A stretch of DNA of 64,000 nt from Plantimonas leprariae (GTDB taxonomy: Bacteria > Pseudomonadota > Alphaproteobacteria > Rhizobiales > Rhizobiaceae). How positions within the stretch are numbered: position 1 is the stretch's first letter; each line of letters opens with the position of its first letter. A model generated the notes under the pieces. That model had not been told where the DNA came from, ran no database searches, and saw only the letters and a program-made list of their open reading frames with translations. Both the position numbers and the translations under genes were made by a program. The stretch lies in the NCBI RefSeq assembly GCF_008802405.1, contig NZ_VZDO01000002.1, positions 310,001 through 374,000 of the forward strand, written 5' to 3'. Positions 51,820 to 62,614 of this stretch are shown here, piece by piece.

Positions 51820-54800
51820 ATGGGTATGAAGATCGAACGCCGCCACACGAAGGCCGGCGAAAGCGCCTACGAGTCCGTCGAGTTCCGCAAGGCGACGAGC
51901 GAGATCAGGAACCCGGACGGATCGGTGGTCTTCCGCCTCGCCGATATCGACGTGCCGGCGCAGTTCAGCCAAGTCGCCTCGGACATCCTGGCGCAGAAGT
52001 ATTTCCGCAAGGCCGGCGTGCCGAAGGTATTGCGCAAGGTCGAGGAGAACGACGTTCCTTCGTGGCTCTGGCGCTCCGTCGCGGACGAAGCCGCGCTCGC
52101 CTCGCTGCCCGAGAACGAGCGTACCGGCTCGGAGATGGACGGCCGGCAGGTCTTCGACCGCCTCGCCGGCACTTGGACCTATTGGGGCTGGAAGGGTGGC
52201 TACTTCGACGCCGAGGAAGACGCCCTCGCCTTCCGCGACGAACTCGCCTTCATGCTTGCGACGCAGAAGGTCGCGCCGAACTCGCCGCAATGGTTCAATA
52301 CCGGTCTCCATTGGGCCTATGGCATCGACGGCCCCGGCCAGGGTCACTTCTACGTCGACTACCGCACCGGCCAGCTCACCCGCTCGTCTTCGGCCTACGA
52401 GCATCCGCAGCCGCACGCCTGCTTCATCCAGTCCGTTTCGGACGACCTCGTGAACGAGGGCGGCATCATGGACCTCTGGGTCCGCGAGGCGCGCCTGTTC
52501 AAGTACGGCTCCGGCACCGGTTCGAACTTCTCGAAGCTGCGCGGTGAGGGCGAGCGGCTGTCGGGCGGCGGCAAGTCCTCCGGTTTGATGAGCTTCCTGA
52601 AGATCGGCGACCGCGCGGCCGGCGCCATTAAGTCCGGCGGCACGACGCGCCGCGCCGCGAAGATGGTGGTGGTCGACATCGATCACCCGGATATCGAGAA
52701 CTACATCGACTGGAAGGTGCGCGAGGAGGAGAAGGTCGCGGCGCTCGTCACCGGCTCGAAGACCGTCTCGAAGCACATGAAGGCGATCCTTTCGGCCTGC
52801 GTGAACTGCGAGGGCTCGGGCGACGACTGCTTCGACCCCTCGAAGAACCCCGCCCTGAAGCGTGCCATCAGGGACGCCAAGCGCGCCCAGGTGCCGGAGA
52901 ACTACGCCAAGCGCGTCATCCAGTTCGCGCGGCAGGGCTACACGAAGATCGATTTCCCGATCTACGACACCGACTGGGACTCGGAGGCCTACCTGACGGT
53001 GGCTGGCCAGAACTCCAACAACTCGGTGCGCGTCACCGACGAATTCCTGCGCGCGGTCGAGAACGACGGCGAGTGGAACCTGACAGCCCGCATCACCGGA
53101 AAGGTGACGAAGACGCTGAAGGCCAAGGAACTCTGGGAGCGCGTCAGCTACGCGGCCTGGGCCTCGGCCGATCCGGGCGTCCAGTACCACACGACGATCA
53201 ACGACTGGCACACCTGCCCGGCCGCCGGCCCGATCGTCGCCTCGAACCCGTGCTCGGAATACATGTTCCTCGACGACACGGCCTGCAACCTCGCCAGCGT
53301 GAACCTCACCCAGTTCCGCGAGAAGGACGGCCGCTTCGACACTGCCAACTTCGAGCACGCGACGCGGCTCTGGACGATCGTCCTCGAGATCTCCGTTCTC
53401 ATGGCGCAGTTCCCGTCGAAGGAGATCGCGCAGCGCTCCTACGACTACCGCACCCTCGGCATCGGCTTCGCCAATATCGGCGGCTTCCTGATGACGAGCG
53501 GCATCCCCTACGATTCGGCGGAAGGCCGGGCGATCTGCGGCGCGGTCTCGGCGCTGATGACCGGCGTCTCCTACAAGACCTCGGCGGAGATGGCCGCCCA
53601 TCTCGGCAGCTTCCCTGACTACGAGCGCAATGCCGAGCATATGCTGCGCGTCATGCGCAACCACAGCCGCGCCGCGCACGGCATCGCCAACGGCTACGAG
53701 GGCATCTCGGTCGATCCCGTGCCGCTCGACCACGCCTCGCTTCGCGACAAGCGCCTGTCGGGCCGGGCGAAGGCGGCCTGGACGGAAGCGGTGGAACTCG
53801 GCGCGCAGCACGGCTACCGCAACGCGCAAGTTTCCGTCGTCGCCCCCACCGGCACGATCGGCCTCGTGATGGACTGCGATACGACCGGCATCGAACCCGA
53901 CTTCGCGCTGGTGAAATTCAAGAAGCTCGCCGGCGGTGGCTACTTCAAGATCATCAACCGCGCGGTGCCGGAAGCTCTGCGCACGCTCGGCTACTCGGAA
54001 GCCGAGATCGGCGAGATCGAGGCCTACGCCGTCGGCCATGGCAACATGAACCAAGCCCCGGCGATCAATCCCGGTAGCTTGCGCGCCAAGGGCTTCGGCG
54101 ATGCCGAGGTCGAGAAGCTGAACGCGGGAATGAAGTCGGCCTTCGACATCAAGTTCGTGTTCAACCGCTGGACGCTCGGCGACGACTTCCTGCGCGGGCT
54201 CGGCGTCACCGACGAGCAGCTCGCCGACATGACGTTCGAGCTCCTGCCCTTCCTCGGCTTCTCGCGGAAGGACATCGAGGCTGCGAACGTCCATGTCTGC
54301 GGGGCGATGACGCTGGAAGGCGCGCCGCACCTGAAAGAGAAGCACCTGCCGGTCTTCGACTGCGCCAATGCGTGCGGCCGCATCGGCAAGCGCTTCCTGT
54401 CGGTCGAATCGCACATCCGCATGATGGCGGCCTCGCAGCCGTTCATCTCGGGCGCGATCTCGAAGACGATCAACATGCCGAACGACGCGACGGTGGAGGA
54501 CTGCGACAAGGCCTACAGGCTGTCGTGGAAGCTCGCGCTGAAGGCGAACGCCCTCTACCGCGACGGCTCGAAGCTCAGCCAACCGCTCAACGCCTCGCTG
54601 ATCGGCGACGACGACGAGGACGATGATGCCGAGGACGCGGCGGCCGCGCTGATCGCGGCCCCGGCCGCGGCCCGCACTGCCGAGATCGCCGAGCGCATCG
54701 TCGAGCGGATCGTCGAGCGCACGGTCGAGAAGGTCGTGCGCAGTCAGGAGAAGCTGCCGACCCGCCGCAAGGGCTACACCCAGAAGGCCAAGATCGGCGG

Positions 54801-55590
54801 CCACACGATCTTCCTTCGCACCGGCGAATACGACGACGGCCGCCTCGGCGAGATCTTCCTCGACATGAACAAGGAAGGCTCGGCGCTGAGGGCGTTCATC
54901 AACAACTTCGCGATCTCGGTGTCGCTCGGCCTCCAGTACGGCGTGCCGCTGGAGGAGTATGTCGACGCCTTCACCTTCACGAAGTTCGAGCCGGCCGGCA
55001 TGGTGCAGGGCAACGATGTGATCAAGAACGCGACGTCGATCCTCGACTACGTGTTCCGCGAACTGGCGGTCTCCTATCTCGGCCGCAACGACCTGGCTCA
55101 CGTCCAGCCGGAGGACCTCGCTACCCGCGGCCAGGAGAGCAAGCCGGCCCCCTCCCCGATCTCGTCCGGCATGGTGCGCGGGCAGACCGGCAACCTTCGG
55201 ATCGTATCCTCCAACGATCCGGCTGGCGGCAACGCTCCGGTCCGCGCCGCCGGCGCTCCCGCGCCGCGCGCTGCGATGACCGCCTCGCCTGCCGTCGCCC
55301 GGTCCGGCGCGCTCGCCGTCGCCCCCTCGACGACGGCGGCAGAGCCGGTGACGGGCCTGCGCCGCGATGCCGAACCGGCGACGCGGGCGCTGTTCGAGGG
55401 CGCGGCTTCCCTCCAGCCCGACGAACGGCCGGCCATCGCCTCGAAAGCGACGGAAACGAACCGCCGGGCGGTCGCCATGATGAAGGGCTACACCGGCGAC
55501 AGCTGCCCGGAATGCTCGAACTTCACCATGGTCCGCAACGGCACCTGCCTGAAGTGCGACACCTGCGGCAGCACTTCCGGGTGCTCATGA
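51820..55590 (+). CDS. nrdJ: Vitamin B12-dependent (class II) ribonucleotide reductase
   Basis: 1256 aa. The substrate-site signature is [20 protein letters not shown] with catalytic Asn/Cys/Glu, redox cysteines and a C-terminal C-x2-C...C-x2-C zinc-like tail ([16 protein letters not shown]). An Ala/Pro-rich linker separates them (about residues 1130-1215). It reduces ribonucleotides using adenosylcobalamin, with or without oxygen. It is the only RNR gene in the window. GGAAAGG precedes the ATG; an in-frame ATG two codons later is the other option. Confidence 0.95.
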
Positions 55591-55920: not shown

Positions 55921-57450
55921 ATGGCCAACAACTGGAAGCACGATCGCGCGAAGGCGGCCATCGACAGGAAGCTCAAAGACGTCGAAACGGTCGAGATCGT
56001 CGACTACAAGCGTGACATGTCGTTGGAGTCGATTCCGACGAATAAGGCGTACCGGATGGACGCCGTTCACCTCTACGTCGACATCCTGAACTTCGAGGGC
56101 ATCCTGTCCTCCACCGAGGTCGACGGGATCACGAGCCACAAACGCGCCCTACGCTTCCTGAACCTTCATCAACGGGCCGTGCATCGGATCCTGCGAAAGA
56201 CCAACACCAGGCGCGTCGACTTCCACAACCAGCGTCTGCACGCCGTCGTGGCCAAGCCCTACGGTGACGACGACGAGGCGACGCGGGTCAACCGTGCCGT
56301 CGCCATCGCCAAGCTCGTCGTCGACGTCCTCGCCGAGACCGGCGACGACGACGAGCATATTCCCGACGCCGAGGTTCGCGTGGGCATCGACACAGGACGC
56401 GCACTCGTCGTCAACAACGGTCGAAGCGGCTATCGCGAACCGCTGTTTCTCGGCCAACCGGCGAACATGGCGGCAAAGCTCGCATCGAACGGGACCCAGG
56501 TCGGCATCTTCCTGACCAACGAAGCTCGTCGTGCCATCGGTCTCGACGAATTCGACGAGGACGAGACCGCCACCACCGCGCTGACCGCGGACGAGATCGC
56601 GCAATGCGAGGAAGCCGCCGATCTCGAAGTTTCCAAGTCGACCGTCATCGACGAATGGCGCAAGGACAACGATGCTAACCCCATCGGCTCCTTCGTATTC
56701 TCCCGAGCGACCCCTCCACTCAGGGATCTGGACATCGCGGTCCTGACGCCGGGAAACTCGAGACGCATGGAAACGGTCTCGGTTTACGCCGACATCGACA
56801 ACTTCACGGCTTACGTGGACGCGCATCTGGACGACAACCGGGAGGACATCGTCCGCTGCCTGCACGTGATCCGTGCCGAACTCGACCGTGTGCTGTCCGC
56901 CGATTTCGGCGGCCGACGCATCCGTTTCATAGGCGACTGCGTCCACGGACATCTGCTCGACGGCACGGCACAGGCGACCGACGTCGAGGCGACGGTCTCG
57001 ACCGGAGCGATCTGTGCCGGGGCGCTCCGCAGCAGTTTCGAACTCGCGCTCGAACGCCTGGGCGACAACGGCGTGGCCGTCGACGACCTGGGACTCGCGA
57101 TCGGATTCGAGATCGGACCGACGGCGATCACGCGGCTCGGGATGCAAGGCTCGCGGGTACGCTGCGCGATCGGCCGCACCGTCGTGGGAGCGGAGAATCA
57201 ACAGAAGCGTTGCGACGGGACAGATACCGCGATCGGAAAAAGCGCCTACGACACGGGTCCAGCTTCGGTTCGGACGTTGTTCGGTTCTGGACGGCTGCAG
57301 TCGGGCCTGACCTACGACGTCGTCATGGAGAGCCTCGAGGCGGACGGCAACAAGGCGGCGAAGGCGATACGGGCGTCCAGCGTCGTCCTCGGCACCCCGG
57401 CGGTCGCCCGGGCGGCTGCGACGCCGTTCCGACCCTATTCGAAGGGGTAG
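55921..57450 (+). CDS. pycC: Pycsar-type pyrimidine cyclase with two cyclase domains
   Basis: 509 aa from ATG 55921 (GGAG nine bases upstream; the frame is open to 55756). Two class III cyclase-like domains are seen. Domain 2 has metal Asp D291 in YADIDNF, D339 in RFIGDCVHG and N426-x3-R430 in ENQQKR. Domain 1 has D54 in YVDILNF but FHNQ (101-104) where the second G-D should be, and N182-x3-K186 instead of N-x3-R. So domain 2 looks catalytic and domain 1 degenerate. PycC enzymes make cyclic CMP or UMP upon phage infection. The protein ends in ...PYSKG, a C-terminal glycine. It is followed by an E2-like gene and PycTM. Confidence 0.85.
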   Translation: MANNWKHDRAKAAIDRKLKDVETVEIVDYKRDMSLESIPTNKAYRMDAVHLYVDILNFEGILSSTEVDGITSHKRALRFLNLHQRAVHRILRKTNTRRVDFHNQRLHAVVAKPYGDDDEATRVNRAVAIAKLVVDVLAETGDDDEHIPDAEVRVGIDTGRALVVNNGRSGYREPLFLGQPANMAAKLASNGTQVGIFLTNEARRAIGLDEFDEDETATTALTADEIAQCEEAADLEVSKSTVIDEWRKDNDANPIGSFVFSRATPPLRDLDIAVLTPGNSRRMETVSVYADIDNFTAYVDAHLDDNREDIVRCLHVIRAELDRVLSADFGGRRIRFIGDCVHGHLLDGTAQATDVEATVSTGAICAGALRSSFELALERLGDNGVAVDDLGLAIGFEIGPTAITRLGMQGSRVRCAIGRTVVGAENQQKRCDGTDTAIGKSAYDTGPASVRTLFGSGRLQSGLTYDVVMESLEADGNKAAKAIRASSVVLGTPAVARAAATPFRPYSKG

Positions 57451-57460
57451 GAGAGCCGTC

Positions 57461-58273
57461 GTGAGTGCGCTGGCGCTCCTTCGAGAGGTGATCGAGGTGA
57501 ACCGCGGCGAGTTCATCCGAGGCGACGCCGGACGGATGTTCGCATCCGTCCGTCCACTGCTGGACTCCGGCGCCAGCGGTCCGACCTTCCTCCTGGAGAT
57601 CGCGGAGGTTTCCGACACACTGATCGCGAGGGAAGCGGCGCCGGTCAACCTGCCGTGCTTCTGTCCCGAGCGTCACATCAACTCGGGGGGCACGTTCTGC
57701 CTCTACTGGGACGAGGACGAACCGCTGTCCTTTTCCACTCGCCCGGACATCGAATTGTGGTGGGGGAAGCTGCTCATCTTCCTTCACCGGCAGATCGTGG
57801 CCGGGCGCCTACGGCGTTGGCCGGGCAAGGGCGACGCCAGAGCCCATGGCCAGGAAGCGTCGCGCTTCCAGAAGAGGGCGGAGATCGCCGCGTCGAAACT
57901 CGGTCCGTCCTTCGAGACGGTGCTGCGCGAGGACCGCCTCACGACCCGGACGGTACGCGGAAAGGGTAGCCGACGGCTTCGCCTCCTACTCGACGGGAAG
58001 AAGATCGCGACGCTGAACGAGGAGCGACAGCAGATCATGACGTTGCGCTCGCGCTGTCGCTGCGAGCGTTCCAACCACCGTCGCCTGCCGCTGACCGCCT
58101 GTGAGGATCACGCCGGAGCGCTGGCCGATCTCGGGATGTCCGTTCGCGGACGCGTCGAAGCCGAGCGCAGGTTCTTCGAATTCTTCGCCGAGGCGAAGGT
58201 TACGTGCTGCGGAACCATGGATGGTTGTCCGCTTGCGCGCCATTCGGACGCGGCCGTCCGAGAAGCGGCTTGA
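57461..58273 (+). CDS. E2-like protein fused to a Cys-rich domain, in Pycsar operon
   Basis: 270 aa with a GTG start at 57461 and GGTAGGAGAG upstream. The N-terminal half has E2 (ubiquitin-conjugating) hallmarks: strand FLLEIAEVSD, then P-E-R-H72-I-N74 in the place of H-P-N, then G-T-F-C80-L-Y-W in the place of the active-site G-x-I-C-L. The C-terminal half has a Cys/His cluster (C199, C201, H206, C214, H217, C249-C250, C256) ending CCGTMDGCPL. That resembles Cys-rich proteins that accompany prokaryotic E2s; here it is fused. No E1, JAB or ubiquitin-like gene is adjacent. An accessory role in controlling the cyclase is inference. Confidence 0.72.
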   Translation: MSALALLREVIEVNRGEFIRGDAGRMFASVRPLLDSGASGPTFLLEIAEVSDTLIAREAAPVNLPCFCPERHINSGGTFCLYWDEDEPLSFSTRPDIELWWGKLLIFLHRQIVAGRLRRWPGKGDARAHGQEASRFQKRAEIAASKLGPSFETVLREDRLTTRTVRGKGSRRLRLLLDGKKIATLNEERQQIMTLRSRCRCERSNHRRLPLTACEDHAGALADLGMSVRGRVEAERRFFEFFAEAKVTCCGTMDGCPLARHSDAAVREAA

Positions 58274-58288: not shown

Positions 58289-58870
58289 ATGGCGAAGGAC
58301 GACCAGCAGGACAGCTTCGAGAAACTCCTCTCCACCCATCACGGGCGGATGATCGACTTCGTGAAGTTCGCGGAGACGAAGAATGCCGCTCTCCTGACGT
58401 TCTGCTCGGTCTGGATCGGCGCGATCATCGGCCTGCTGAGAGCGCCCGACAAGCTCCCGATGAACTACGACAAGGCATTCCTGGCCGTGTTGCCCATCCT
58501 GTTCGTCGCCGCCCTCCTCACGCTGAGATCGTTCCTTCCGCGGTTCCTTCACCATCACCATCACTCCGACGAGGATGGTTCCAAGAACCTTCTCTACTTC
58601 GGCGACATCGCCTCGTTGAAGACGGATCAATACATCCATCGCATCCGAGAGCGTTATTATCCGCCGGATGGATCGTCCTGCACGGAACGCTACCTGGACG
58701 ATCTCGCCGTTCAGGTTTCGGTGCAGAGTCAGATCGCGCTGCGCAAGTTCAAGACCTTCACGCGAGCCGGCTGTCTCGTCCTGGCGGCGTTCGCCATCCT
58801 CGCCCTGCCGATCATCCATGCCGCAGTGTCGGCGGCGGCCCGGTACGCGTTGATGCGGGGATGGATCTAG
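58289..58870 (+). CDS. pycTM: PycTM-type Pycsar effector
   Basis: 193 aa. An N-terminal cytosolic helix is followed by TM segments at about 33-50 and 63-80, a conserved loop KNLLYFGDIASLKTDQYI (about 99-116) and a third hydrophobic segment at about 158-180. The NAALLTFCSVWIGAIIGLL ... LYFGDI pattern is that of Pycsar membrane effectors. On binding the cyclic pyrimidine signal it is expected to damage the membrane and stop the infected cell. A natural five-His run is at 88-92. It lies 15 bp after the E2-like gene, so one operon. Confidence 0.85.
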   Translation: MAKDDQQDSFEKLLSTHHGRMIDFVKFAETKNAALLTFCSVWIGAIIGLLRAPDKLPMNYDKAFLAVLPILFVAALLTLRSFLPRFLHHHHHSDEDGSKNLLYFGDIASLKTDQYIHRIRERYYPPDGSSCTERYLDDLAVQVSVQSQIALRKFKTFTRAGCLVLAAFAILALPIIHAAVSAAARYALMRGWI

Positions 58871-59034: not shown

Positions 59035-60819
59035 CTACCCGGACCCGGCAAGCCGCTGCTCGAGATCAGCCACGAAGCGCGACGGCGACTGCATGCCGTA
59101 TATCAGGTGGACCTCCTTCCGCGCTCGGGTGATGCCGACATAGAAGAGACGCCTCGCCTCCCGAAGCTCGTCCTGGAGAGGGTTGTTGCGGGGAAGCTTG
59201 CCCTCGTCCATCTCGAAGAGCACGACGACGTCGAACTCGCGTCCCTTGGCGCTGTGCAGGGTCGACAGGTTCAAGCGGTCGGCCCCGATGCCGATGCCGG
59301 AAAAATCGCCGAGCGCCATAGCGCCAGGATCGCCGTCGTGGAGGCGGGCTATGAACGCGACAAGCGTCTCACGTTCTTCGGCCAGCGTCCGTACGCGTTC
59401 CACCATCGGTCGGACGATCTCGGCGTCCATGTCGGCGAGCCAGTCGTGCAAGCTCGCGGCAGCGTCGCGGTGTGCCCAAAGGTTCTCGACCAGGAGCCGG
59501 CGAAACACGACGCGCCCATCCTCGTCGGCGACGACGTCGCGAAAGAGACGACATCCTTCCTCGACGAGGTTCGCCATTCGCGGTCGACCCGTCCGCCACC
59601 CGCCGCAGCACCAGACGGCGCATTGCTCCAACCAACGCATCAGGCGGCTGCCGCGGGGGTAGAGAGCGTTCCCGTCGGTCCGGACGGTCGCAATGCCGGC
59701 GGCTGCCGCCGCGTCGGCGACCTCGTCTCCCATCGAGGCGGTGGCATAGAGGACCGCGACCTCGCCGAGACGCAGACCGGCATGGCGACCCTGGATCGCC
59801 GGCAGCAACTCGCCGACGAGGAAACGTGCCCGATCCGCGGACGTGCCGGCCTTGGGATGGAAGTAGATCGTCCCTTCGGGCGCTCCATCCGAAGCGCGAT
59901 AACCCCTCGCCTCTCCGAGCGCGTATTCCGAAGCGGTGACGATACGCGAGCCGCACCGGTAATTGATCCCGAGCCGAATCGTCTCGACGTCGTCACGCTC
60001 CGACAACCGGCGCAGGAGGTCGGGGGCGGCCCCGATGAAGCCGTAGATGGACTGATCGACGTCCCCGACCGCGAACAGACGCATGCCCGCCCGGAAGCAG
60101 AGCCCGAGCACCATGGAATGCAACGCCGTGCCGAGGTCTTGGTATTCGTCCACGGCGAGGATCGGGTACTTGGCCACGAGCGCGGTGCGGAGCCATCCGT
60201 TCTCGGCAAGGGCCCGAAGCGCCAGCAGCGGCATGTCGTCGAAGTCGACAGTTCCCAAGGCGCGAAGCTCCGCCTCGTAGGTTTCGACCAGGGCCGCCAG
60301 CGTCGCGTCGGTCTCGCGCCATTCCGGGCGACCCCGATTCACATACGTCCGGCGATATCGGTTTGCCCGGAAGCGCCAGCTTGCTGGGGTTTGCGGTCCC
60401 GGTGCGACGCGGTTGTAGGCCCGTTCGAACGCTTGCCGCTGCTGCTGCTCGGTCGCCACCTCGAAATCGTCCGGAAGGCCGAGACCGGCGGACCGCGCAT
60501 AGGGCAGCACGATCTGCGTCAGCGAGAACGAATGGACCGTCCCGACGAAGACCCGGCCGCTCCGAGACACCCCGAGGGCGTCCAGACGCTGCTCGATCTC
60601 GCGGGCGCACTCGTTGTTGTAAGTGATGCAGGCCAAGCCACGCGGTGCCTCGACGTCCTCGTCCAGCATCCGGGCGAGCTTGGTCGCGAGCGTCTTCGTC
60701 TTGCCGCTGCCAGGGCCGGCGAGCAGCACGCAGTGGCCGGTCGACTCGTAGGCCCGCCATTGAGCGTCGTTGGCGCGCAGGTCTTCCGCCGCCCCTCGAT
60801 AGAGAAAGCGATCAGACAC
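59035..60819 (-). CDS. gajB: Gabija helicase GajB (UvrD/PcrA-like)
   Basis: 594 aa superfamily 1A helicase. Walker A GPGSGKT (35-41), Walker B VDEYQDL, motif III GDVDQSIYGF, motif IV GINYRCGSRIV, motif V STLHSAKGREFD, motif VI FYVGITRARKE. It overlaps the GajA stop by 8 bp, the standard gajA-gajB coupling. GajB is thought to process or activate at DNA ends released by infection. A generic Rep-like helicase is possible without the neighbour; with GajA the assignment is firm. Slightly longer than typical GajB (about 500). Confidence 0.87.
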   Translation of the reverse strand: MSDRFLYRGAAEDLRANDAQWRAYESTGHCVLLAGPGSGKTKTLATKLARMLDEDVEAPRGLACITYNNECAREIEQRLDALGVSRSGRVFVGTVHSFSLTQIVLPYARSAGLGLPDDFEVATEQQQRQAFERAYNRVAPGPQTPASWRFRANRYRRTYVNRGRPEWRETDATLAALVETYEAELRALGTVDFDDMPLLALRALAENGWLRTALVAKYPILAVDEYQDLGTALHSMVLGLCFRAGMRLFAVGDVDQSIYGFIGAAPDLLRRLSERDDVETIRLGINYRCGSRIVTASEYALGEARGYRASDGAPEGTIYFHPKAGTSADRARFLVGELLPAIQGRHAGLRLGEVAVLYATASMGDEVADAAAAAGIATVRTDGNALYPRGSRLMRWLEQCAVWCCGGWRTGRPRMANLVEEGCRLFRDVVADEDGRVVFRRLLVENLWAHRDAAASLHDWLADMDAEIVRPMVERVRTLAEERETLVAFIARLHDGDPGAMALGDFSGIGIGADRLNLSTLHSAKGREFDVVVLFEMDEGKLPRNNPLQDELREARRLFYVGITRARKEVHLIYGMQSPSRFVADLEQRLAGSG

Positions 60820-62614
60820 GGTCGATCACGAACTGGATTGCGCGCTCGACGTAACCCGGCACCCCCTTGCCGACGATGCGCGTCGCGAGACGCTGCGCGA
60901 AGCGCCCCTTGCCGATCGTCTCGATCATGTCCAGCATCAGCTTCCTTTCGACGGTCCGCGGATCGACGTGCCATCCGTCGAGCGCAGTCCGCCGTTCTCC
61001 CCGCCAGTTCCTTTCTTCCAAGGTTTCCAGCATCGCGTCGGAAAAGCCGCTGCCGAACAACTCCATTTCGAGCGTGTCGGAGTTGACGTGGATACCGAAC
61101 CGTTCGCAGCGTTCGAAAGCATCCTCGTACGTCGGCTCGTCCTCGATTCGTCGAATGACGAGATCGGTGTCGCCCCCTTTTTGCGCCTCGTCGATAGTCC
61201 TGACGAGGGCGACCGCCCGGTTGAAGGCCAGCGGTTCGCCGTCGACCTCGTCGTAGTCGGTGACAACCGTGAACGGGATGCCCAACGCGCACAACAGCTT
61301 CGCGTACGGCTGGAAGTTCGTGCCGGCGACCGAACAAACGGTTATTCCCTGCTCGTCCAGCGACACGCCCATCTCGGCTGCGAACGTCGGCATCAGAAAT
61401 CGTTCGGCGTCGCCTTCGACCAGGATCACGCCGCGGGCGAAGACCAGTTCCGCCCGCGTCACGTCGAGATAGCGGGCGAGATCGTCGACGTCCTTGTCGG
61501 AGAAACCGGCGTTCGCCGTCGAGTAGCCGACCGTCCCTGACCTGCCTTCGCGTCGCAACAGCAGGAGCGACGCCAACGGCGCGACGCTTGCGATGTGCGG
61601 CGAGTGCGTCGTCAATACCAAGGACAACGGCTTCCTGCCTTCGTGCCGCGGTCCGTTGACGAACGTCTCGAACAGGTGCCGATAGACCAGACGCTGCAGA
61701 TGAGGATGCAGGTGCGCTTCCGGTTCCTCGACGGCCAGCAGTCCGTGGTCGCGACGGTTCCGGTCGATGGACCGCTGCAGTTCGAGAAGCTTCAGCGTGA
61801 AGAAGACGAGGTTCGCCGAGCCGAGGCTCGCCTCGCCGACGCCCCTCCGCCCTTCGTCAACCAGCAACCGGACCTGCCGAGCGATGCGCGAAGCGGCCGT
61901 CGCGGAAAATCCAAGCGTCGCCCGGACGTCCTGCTTCTTGCCGGCCAAGCTCAAGAACGCTTCGGCGATCCTCGTCTCCAGCGTCCGCACCTCGTCGAAC
62001 TCGAGTACCGCCCCGGTCGCCTCGGCGATCTTCTCGCCCACGGCTTCCAGTTCGTCCTGATCGATGCCGGCGAAGGCGTCCTCGATCAGCGGGCGCAGCG
62101 GCGACCGTCGCCACGCCGCGAGATCGCCTTCGGCGTCGCGCAACGCGGGGAGGACGTCCATCGTGATCCGGCGACGGAGGTCATGGCCGAAGCGCCGCCT
62201 CTCGTCCTCGCCGCCGAAGCAGGTGAACACGAAGTCGGCGTCCGTGGTGGGGTCGTCCTCCAGGCCTGGACGCGTCCGCAGGCGGTAGGTCAGACGGACC
62301 GTGCTCGCGTCCGCGTCGAGCCGAAAGTCGGTGAGGACCGCCAGCACGTCGAGATCCCACTCGAAGTCCTTGATCTCGACCGAAACGGTCATCACCGAGT
62401 CCACGTCCGGACCGCCCAGCCCATCCCAGAAGTCGGCGATCCCGAGTTGCCTGGCCGTGTCCGGCAGCGATGGATCGAAGATCAGCCGGAGCGCGAAAAG
62501 GAGGTTGCTCTTGCCGACGCCGTTCTCTCCGACGATCACGGCGTCGCCAGCGAGCGCCACGTCGAGCCGGCGGAAGTTCCGGAAGTTCTCGATGATGACC
62601 CTCGAAAGGTACAT
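60812..62614 (-). CDS. gajA: Gabija ATPase-TOPRIM nuclease GajA (class 2 OLD)
   Basis: 600 aa. ABC-type ATPase: Walker A GENGVGKSN (29-37), Walker B EEPEAHLHP (296-304), H-loop TTHSPH (335-340). TOPRIM nuclease: E400 in VILVEGDAE and D453-x-D455 in VVTDYDEVDG. Class 2 OLD enzymes next to a UvrD-type helicase define Gabija, whose nuclease is released when NTPs fall during infection. Complete. Confidence 0.88.
   Translation of the reverse strand: MYLSRVIIENFRNFRRLDVALAGDAVIVGENGVGKSNLLFALRLIFDPSLPDTARQLGIADFWDGLGGPDVDSVMTVSVEIKDFEWDLDVLAVLTDFRLDADASTVRLTYRLRTRPGLEDDPTTDADFVFTCFGGEDERRRFGHDLRRRITMDVLPALRDAEGDLAAWRRSPLRPLIEDAFAGIDQDELEAVGEKIAEATGAVLEFDEVRTLETRIAEAFLSLAGKKQDVRATLGFSATAASRIARQVRLLVDEGRRGVGEASLGSANLVFFTLKLLELQRSIDRNRRDHGLLAVEEPEAHLHPHLQRLVYRHLFETFVNGPRHEGRKPLSLVLTTHSPHIASVAPLASLLLLRREGRSGTVGYSTANAGFSDKDVDDLARYLDVTRAELVFARGVILVEGDAERFLMPTFAAEMGVSLDEQGITVCSVAGTNFQPYAKLLCALGIPFTVVTDYDEVDGEPLAFNRAVALVRTIDEAQKGGDTDLVIRRIEDEPTYEDAFERCERFGIHVNSDTLEMELFGSGFSDAMLETLEERNWRGERRTALDGWHVDPRTVERKLMLDMIETIGKGRFAQRLATRIVGKGVPGYVERAIQFVIDRV

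What the first reader, a model, noticed from the sequence alone, without database searches (positions are those of the whole stretch)
57421..58273. Cyclase ends in a C-terminal glycine next to an E2-only protein: possible conjugation of PycC
Seen: PycC ends ...TPFRPYSKG after an Ala-rich flexible stretch, and no E1, JAB or ubiquitin-like gene is nearby. Known: in type II CBASS the CD-NTase is conjugated through its C-terminal Gly by E1-E2 (Cap2), and in type II-short systems by an E2 alone. Inference: the same chemistry could act on a pyrimidine cyclase here.
Basis: inference. Interest (0 to 1): 0.7.

Follow-up and report, generated by a model that had tools for sequence, protein, structure and literature searches.

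The report
Immune cyclase tail matched to E2
A bacterial antiviral enzyme that makes cyclic pyrimidine signals probably has its tail end acted on by a neighbouring ubiquitin-type E2 enzyme; what is conserved is a short tail motif, shared with an unrelated family of immune enzymes, and not a final glycine.

Summary
The genes are real: a tandem-domain Pycsar cyclase (PycC, 55921-57450) ending TPFRPYSKG, a solo E2 with invariant Cys80 (57461-58273) and a PycTM effector. Conserved instead is a short motif, usually [R/K]-[P/A]-[H/Y], mostly 2-4 residues before the end. A like motif (basic-P-W/H, then 1-4 residues) ends 8 of 9 CD-NTases beside Cys-rich solo E2s in CBASS, and a single-domain PycC beside such an E2. 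Five related PycCs, in two branches of the tree, sit beside a Cap2-like E1-E2 instead; their tails end GF[A/S] or RHA, as Cap2-linked CD-NTases end GF[A/G] in 5 of 6. So tail type follows the conjugating enzyme, not the cyclase fold. Best reading: the solo E2 recognises, and probably processes and conjugates, the PycC tail at an internal site, as for Serratia CdnG-E2, the E2 model's top (narrowly) structural match. Covalent chemistry is inferred, not shown. Conjugation idea: partly supported; terminal-Gly idea: not supported.

The parts
55921..57450 (+). PycC, tandem-domain (clade A type) Pycsar cyclase, 509 aa
   Evidence: PADLOC PDLC00762 E 7.7e-223, Pfam Guanylate_cyc; profile of 18 homologues matches P. 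aeruginosa PycC 6YII E 2.6e-214 (identity of 6YII)
57391..57447 (+). low-confidence, Ala-rich C-terminal tail of PycC (residues 491-509)
   Evidence: AF2 pLDDT block means 49 and 47; sequence
57430..57438 (+). conserved tail motif R-P-Y
   Evidence: [PAS][HYFW] followed by 1-11 residues and the end in 52 of 52 E2-linked PycC representatives; 44 of 52 with 1-4 residues
57439..57447 (+). variable last residues S-K-G (proposed leaving peptide; inference)
   Evidence: end residues and their number vary among relatives
57461..58273 (+). solo E2 protein, 270 aa (E2-ntca + E2-Crich domains)
   Evidence: Pfam PF20298 E 1.4e-23 and PF20272 E 8.7e-25; AF2 pLDDT 93, best match Serratia CdnG-E2 8hsb_B Z 8.1
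57698..57700 (+). Cys80 codon of the E2 (catalytic Cys by alignment)
   Evidence: invariant 38 of 38, downstream of R71-H72-I73; aligned by hhalign with the Cys of CBASS solo E2s
57842..58234 (+). Cys-rich (E2-Crich) domain
   Evidence: Pfam PF20272 residues 128-258; C249, C250, C256 38 of 38
58289..58870 (+). PycTM membrane effector, 193 aa
   Evidence: Pfam PycTM PF18967 E 1.1e-10; PADLOC 2TM effector PDLC00668 E 7.3e-76

Best explanation
This is a Pycsar operon under type II-like tail control. PycC carries a flexible tail with a short recognition motif (FRPY) three residues before its end. The solo E2 binds this motif (supported by covariation). It then most likely acts on the tail as the Serratia type II-short E2 is recalled to act on CdnG: it removes the variable last residues, holds PycC on Cys80 as a thioester, and passes it to a lysine of PycC itself or of another protein, thereby raising or restraining cUMP synthesis; cUMP would then switch on the PycTM effector in the membrane. 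Shown here: gene order, E2 fold and invariant Cys, near-terminal motif, a like motif in CD-NTases next to related solo E2s, a different tail where a Cap2-like gene replaces the E2. Inferred: binding, cleavage site, thioester, target, effect on activity, and the cUMP product (assigned from the clade).
For: 52 of 52 E2-linked PycC representatives (under about 80% identity) have [PAS][HYFW] followed by 1-11 residues and the end, and 44 of 52 by 1-4; 2000 shuffles of the tails give a mean of 8.6 and at most 19 for the 1-4 form; background 42 of 486 (1-4 form) and 99 of 486 (1-11 form). [RK][PAS][HYFW] plus 1-4 residues: 40 of 52 against 9 of 486. Nine of nine CD-NTases beside Cys-rich (SEC-C-like) solo E2s end P[HW] plus 1-4 residues, 8 of 9 with a basic residue before P: RPHRC, KPWRK, KPWFKQ, KPWKNI, KPWGDTY, KPWCRS, SPWSR, KPWRN, KPWFPGE. 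A single-domain PycC in Chryseobacterium beside such an E2 ends NRPWLKRS. ThiF-linked PycCs (5 distinct) end GFA, GFS, GFS, RHA, RHA and lack the near-terminal motif; Cap2-linked CD-NTases end GFA or GFG in 5 of 6. On the PycC tree the ThiF label needs 2 changes. CD-NTases beside a third, compact solo-E2 class end FFG plus 1-11 residues; Serratia SmCdnG (8HSB_A, 407 aa) aligns with them up to NTFYG at residue 406, and its E2 is homologous to that class. Fold.
Against: No biochemistry. The motif was read off PycC tails first and then widened to include W after seeing the CD-NTases; with [PAS][HYF] alone only 1 of 9 CD-NTases fits. The loose motif with up to 11 following residues occurs in 99 of 486 background proteins. 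No Gly or Ala is conserved at the PycC end, whereas the Cap2 reaction of E. coli cGAS accepted Gly, less well Ala, and not Ser, Val, Arg or Trp (PMC10097602, section 5), so a solo E2 would have to accept other residues after cleavage. A purely non-covalent use of the motif would give the same covariation. Jenson et al. report no C-terminal conservation outside Cap2+Cap3 operons. Structural Z 8.1 is only slightly above other E2-fold proteins (7.5, 7.4). Sequences are related by descent, so counts are not independent events.
Confidence: 0.55

Rival explanations
1. The E2 is a non-covalent partner: it clamps the PycC tail through the motif to hold the cyclase off, or to place it at the membrane, without thioester chemistry.
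For: The same motif covariation is expected; the last residue is free; no E1 for ATP activation lies nearby.
Against: C80, R71 and H72 are kept in 38 of 38 and position 74 is N in 34 and Q in 4, which a mere clamp would not need; the module is exchanged with an E1-E2.
Confidence: 0.2
2. One reading: PycC is conjugated directly through its encoded C-terminal Gly.
For: This PycC ends in Gly; Cap2 uses Gly or Ala (PMC10097602).
Against: Terminal Gly in 9 of 52 representatives; absent in L004, 69% identical; R (12) and K (10) are commoner.
Confidence: 0.05
3. The C-terminus is activated by an E1 encoded elsewhere in the genome and transferred by this E2 without cleavage, so the last residue is free.
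For: E2s normally need an E1 (general knowledge); the number of residues after the motif is narrow (2-5 in 46 of 52).
Against: A conserved end residue would be expected from E1 selectivity (inference). The genome was not searched for E1s, so this is weakly tested.
Confidence: 0.12
4. The motif serves something else in PycC (for example translational coupling to the E2 start, or an effector contact) and the CD-NTase likeness is coincidence.
For: PycC and E2 genes overlap by 4 nt in 23 of the 38 loci measured (of 56), so tail codons lie close to the E2 start.
Against: CD-NTases of another fold, from four phyla, show a like motif; ThiF-linked PycCs lack it; single-domain PycCs without E2 in the same loci match the loose form in 3 of 18.
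Confidence: 0.08

Closest known systems
Clade A Pycsar (PycC with two cyclase domains; P. aeruginosa PycC, PDB 6YII)
   Same: Same cyclase family (clade A definition seen in passages of PMC11224242); PycTM effector here.
   Different: That paper's main text has no hit for 'ubiquitin'; the E2 and the tail motif are added here.
Type II-short CBASS: Serratia marcescens CdnG-E2 (PDB 8HSB, 8YJY)
   Same: Solo E2 beside a nucleotide cyclase; nearest structural match of the E2, by a small margin; cyclase end has a motif followed by an extra residue.
   Different: Cyclase is a CD-NTase, not a class III cyclase; its E2 chain is 162 residues and so has no room for the Cys-rich domain; tail motif is FYG/FFG, not RPY.
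Solo-E2 CBASS with SEC-C-like E2 (Vibrio gigantis, Cytobacillus and others; VcCdnG, PDB 9WOO)
   Same: Cys-rich solo E2, hhalign 97.8% over 96 columns of the E2 core; cyclase tails P-W/H plus 1-4 residues.
   Different: CD-NTase cyclase; W is usual where PycC has H, Y or F.
Type II CBASS Cap2-Cap3
   Same: Homologous Cap2-like genes, once with a JAB gene, occur in other operons of this PycC family, with Cap2-type tails.
   Different: Absent from this locus; this tail is not of the Cap2 type.

Membership tests
Pycsar | class III-type pyrimidine cyclase PycC | tested here: met
   PDLC00762 E 7.7e-223; 6YII match
Pycsar | cyclic-pyrimidine effector (PycTM or PycTIR) in the operon | tested here: met
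   PF18967 PycTM over its cut-off
Pycsar | synthesis of cUMP or cCMP | not testable with these tools
   needs enzyme assay
Type II-short CBASS | CD-NTase cyclase | tested here: not met
   cyclase is Guanylate_cyc/PycC
Type II-short CBASS | solo E2 without E1 or JAB in the operon | tested here: met
   class widened to W after the fact
Type II (Cap2/Cap3) CBASS-like conjugation | E1 domain in the operon | tested here: not met
   no ThiF-type gene near
Type II (Cap2/Cap3) CBASS-like conjugation | cyclase ending in conserved Gly or Ala | tested here: inconclusive
   this PycC ends in Gly, but Gly is not conserved in its family: 9 of 52
Ubiquitin-conjugating E2 fold | E2 fold with catalytic Cys and upstream HxN-like motif | tested here: met
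   Pfam E2-ntca; C80 and H72 38 of 38, position 74 N 34, Q 4; fold
Ubiquitin-conjugating E2 fold | thioester or isopeptide product | not testable with these tools
   needs biochemistry

The most novel reading that the evidence does not exclude
Bacterial nucleotide-signal immunity has a portable 'tail code': conjugation enzymes of separate classes (Cys-rich solo E2; compact solo E2; Cap2 E1-E2) each read their own short C-terminal signal, and unrelated cyclases (CD-NTases and class III PycCs) are placed under their control by gaining that signal. In solo-E2 classes the E2 itself cuts the tail at the motif and conjugates the new end without an E1, including ends that are not Gly or Ala. This PycC would then be, as far as I know, the first cyclase outside the CD-NTase fold conjugated in this way.
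Probability: 0.4. Interest if true: 0.88.

Novelty: new variant of a known kind. Interest (0 to 1): 0.74.

Why it matters
It would extend ubiquitin-like control from CBASS to Pycsar, a system with an unrelated cyclase and no such link in the paper listings seen here. It gives a testable signal (which residues of the tail) where the published Gly/Ala rule does not apply, and would explain why no terminal-residue conservation is reported outside Cap2 operons: the signal lies a few residues inside. It could also let one tell from sequence which conjugation enzyme acts on a given immune cyclase.

Tried and rejected
Terminal Gly as the signal: rejected (9 of 52). PycCs of this family without any E2 or E1-E2, as a control: none found (0 of 83 distinct), so single-domain PycCs from the same loci were used (3 of 18 fit the loose form). 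Viral contigs: 10 pattern matches, no relative of the E2. PADLOC model PDLC00872 over 299 genomes gave 277 positives; the best two (E 2.5e-47, 1.5e-38) were used, and the rest of the list as printed is short and weak (5.8e-8 or worse), some with stops inside. Profile search of PDB sequences with the E2 alignment found no relative (best E 0.76). Foldseek alone gave no match at E under 0.001; the second look was used. NCBIfam gave nothing at E 0.01 for the three window proteins. An early coordinate script chose wrong starts for loci with two cyclases and was replaced for the tails; its sound rows were reused for E2 and PycC alignments and spacing. The 'offset' figures printed used profile positions and are not cited. 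The first run over the SMODS loci stopped with an error and was redone.

Rows dropped: of 28 plasmid records with PycC matches, 20 were read and 8 were not fetched. Of the 23 loci from the SMODS search, 6 gave no CD-NTase frame by my script, 6 had a ThiF gene detected, 2 more (L144, L145) had a following frame that I did not test, 4 had FFG-type tails (solo E2 confirmed for 3, L162-L164; not for L161), and 5 had no E2 or ThiF detected. One search counted L144 and L145 as Cap2-linked (8 tails); only 6 are shown. Of 12 CBASS-type E2 loci read (L127-L137, with L133 and L137 among them), L133 (Carnobacterium) has a transposase directly upstream and no cyclase seen and was left out of the nine tails, and L137 is a PycC. 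The counts correct for shared ancestry only by the 80% thinning. The window E2 alignment used for residue counts held 38 of 53 available rows.

Literature: the listings (several capped: 25 of 375, 17 of 18, 20 of 27 and 25 of 36 shown) and the passages read show no paper that ties Pycsar to E2, Cap2 or ubiquitin-like conjugation. Tal 2021, Ledvina 2023, Yan 2024 and the Hobbs-Kranzusch review are not held, so I cannot say that it is not in print. That the Serratia E2 processes the cGAS C-terminus is recalled; only the title of that paper was seen, in reference lists. Pfam's family name 'E2-ntca' may mean that its curators knew of a cyclase link; its meaning was not checked.
Full report
What is there. 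The window holds a three-gene operon: PycC 55921-57450, a solo E2 57461-58273 and PycTM 58289-58870, all on the + strand. PycC matches the PADLOC cyclase model PDLC00762 at 7.7e-223 and, as a profile, the solved P. aeruginosa PycC 6YII at 2.6e-214. PMC11224242 (passages) describes clade A PycCs as having two consecutive cyclase domains and 6YII as clade A; this PycC has the same build. The E2 has Pfam domains E2-ntca and E2-Crich.

Is the E2 a real E2? C80 is invariant in 38 of 38 aligned homologues (38 of 53 available were aligned), as are C68, R71, H72, I73, F79, Q111, H129, G130, C249, C250 and C256; position 74 is N in 34 and Q in 4. The AF2 model has mean pLDDT 93. Its two best VIA-align matches are the E2 chains of the Serratia marcescens CdnG-E2 complex (8hsb_B Z 8.1, 3.5 A over 123 residues; 8yjy_B Z 8.0), just above TSG101 UEV (7.5) and UBE2L6 (7.4), so the lead is within what the tool calls a tie.

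How tied are PycC and E2? A scan of the GTDB contig collection with the E2 alignment gave 56 loci, and 56 of 56 have a tandem PycC (in L051 and L063 only its end, at a contig edge) beside the E2. Searches led by PycC are the fairer test: 13 of 394 genomes of the family (own genome included) had a PycC, 11 beside a solo E2 and 2 beside a ThiF protein; 2 of 385 in the class sample (own genome included), both beside an E2; on plasmids 28 records matched, of which I read 20: 17 with a solo E2 and 3 with a ThiF protein. No PycC of this family with a readable end lacked both (0 of 83 distinct). PycC and E2 overlap by 4 nt in 23 of the 38 loci measured, out of 56.

After removing duplicates, 78 E2-linked and 5 ThiF-linked PycCs remain, 52 and 5 at about 80% thinning. 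The last residue of the 52 is R 12, K 10, G 9, S 4, D 3, E 3 and others, Ala 0. Background proteins from the same loci end in Gly in 49 of 486.

What is conserved. Just before the end, after a variable linker, 52 of 52 have [PAS][HYFW] followed by 1-11 residues (background 99 of 486); in 44 it is 1-4 residues, against a mean of 8.6 and a maximum of 19 in 2000 shuffles of the last 25 residues and 42 of 486 background proteins. With a basic residue in front and 1-4 residues after it is 40 of 52 against 9 of 486. The usual forms are R-P-H/Y and R-A-H, the latter often doubled (PMRAH...PMRAH) in some alphaproteobacterial loci.

The cross-fold comparison. Two CBASS operons with a CD-NTase and a solo E2 came from a genome search with a CBASS E2 model; plasmid searches with their E2s gave more, in Vibrio, Aliarcobacter, Cytobacillus, Haliscomenobacter, Enterococcus, Ligilactobacillus and Roseivivax. 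Their E2s have a SEC-C-like Cys-rich end and align with the window's E2 family over the catalytic core (hhalign 97.8%, 96 columns). The nine CD-NTases all end P[HW] plus 1-4 residues, eight with K or R before P; the linker before it is poorly conserved. In Chryseobacterium a single-domain PycC with PycTM and such an E2 ends NRPWLKRS. The motif class was widened to W on seeing these tails: with H, Y, F only, 1 of 9 fits. The binomial figures printed treat the nine as independent and the class as fixed beforehand, and I do not rely on them.

The swap. Five distinct PycCs sit beside a ThiF protein. Of the three read by Pfam, one (L020) has ThiF and a sub-threshold E2-E1mid match, with a neighbouring Prok-JAB gene; one (L024) Prok-E2_B + ThiF; one (L021) ThiF only; PADLOC files all three as near full-length E1-E2. 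The other two (L005, L106) were recognised with a profile built here from those three. The Mesorhizobium one (L020) is 34-41% identical to proteins whose annotated neighbours are nucleotidyltransferases or DncV. On a tree of 57 PycCs these five fall in two places, and the label needs two changes. Their tails end GFA, GFS, GFS and RHA, RHA, and 0 of 5 carry the RPY-type motif at the end. Cap2-linked CD-NTases from a separate search end GFA or GFG in 5 of 6 and NNA in the sixth; GF[AGS] ends 0 of 486 background proteins. PMC10097602 (outline, passages and section 5 read) reports Gly or Ala as the conserved last residue only in Cap2+Cap3 operons; a last Ser, as in two of these PycCs, was not accepted by E. 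coli cGAS there, which is a point against reading those two tails as Cap2 substrates without test.

A third class, and the experimental precedent. Three CD-NTases beside a compact solo E2 (PADLOC PDLC00864/863/877), and a fourth whose E2 I could not confirm, end FFG plus 1-11 residues. SmCdnG, the cyclase in the solved CdnG-E2 complex, aligns with this class up to NTFYG at residue 406 of 407, and its E2 is homologous to that class (E 4.9e-25). I recall that the Serratia study (Yan 2024, not held; title only seen) reported processing of the cGAS C-terminus, then linkage to a cysteine and ligation to lysine. [quoted passage not shown] If so, residues after the motif are a leaving peptide, which would explain why the last residue is free in solo-E2 systems.

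Mechanism and limits. I commit to: motif recognition by the E2 (likely), cleavage and thioester on C80 (more likely than not), ligation to lysine and a change of cyclase output (plausible). Nothing here measures a bond. A clamp without chemistry fits the tails equally well and is disfavoured mainly by the invariant active site and the exchange with E1-E2 enzymes.

Novelty. It is a Pycsar operon by membership and works like type II-short CBASS by inference; it is not a member of CBASS, since the cyclase is not a CD-NTase. The presence of E2 genes beside these cyclases is already reflected in databases (product names such as 'E2 domain-containing protein' in PLSDB records, Pfam and PADLOC models). 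The tail pattern across cyclase folds and conjugation classes did not appear in the listings and passages I saw, but key papers are not held.

Noticed in passing
59035-62614, - strand: A Gabija pair (GajB 59035-60819, GajA 60812-62614; PADLOC E 4.5e-231 and 8.3e-233) lies directly downstream, so this is a small defence island beside a class II ribonucleotide reductase gene (51820-55590).
   Followed up: no
L025, L027, L029, L031, L038, L045, L048, L055, L064, L067, L074, L079, L081, L083, L086, L088, L089, L094: A second, single-domain PycC-like cyclase lies in many of the same loci (18 distinct), in some annotated cases beside its own TIR or nucleotide-binding gene: two Pycsar systems side by side, only one with an E2.
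   Followed up: partly
L161-L164: A separate compact solo-E2 class (E2 confirmed in L162-L164) has CD-NTases ending NTFFG or RFFG plus 1-11 residues; SmCdnG of Serratia has NTFYG one residue before its end.
   Followed up: partly
L026:3039-4325: In Bradyrhizobium the gene after PycC-E2 is a Tle1-like (DUF2235) phospholipase, an effector type not usual for Pycsar (recalled).
   Followed up: no
L028, L029, L032, L033: Roseobacter PycC-E2 loci carry a divergent WYL regulator next to a cyclic-nucleotide-binding gene.
   Followed up: no
L023:5502-6259: In Acinetobacter sp. NEB149 the E2 and its Cys-rich part are two separate, overlapping genes.
   Followed up: no
L137:1856-3977: Chryseobacterium plasmid: PycTM, single-domain PycC and SEC-C-type E2, so solo E2s may have joined Pycsar more than once.
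   Followed up: yes
L018, L019, L035: The E2 beside PycC is missing from the (incomplete) PLSDB gene table on Pseudomonas, Xanthomonas and Stutzerimonas plasmids; it may be overlooked in annotation.
   Followed up: partly
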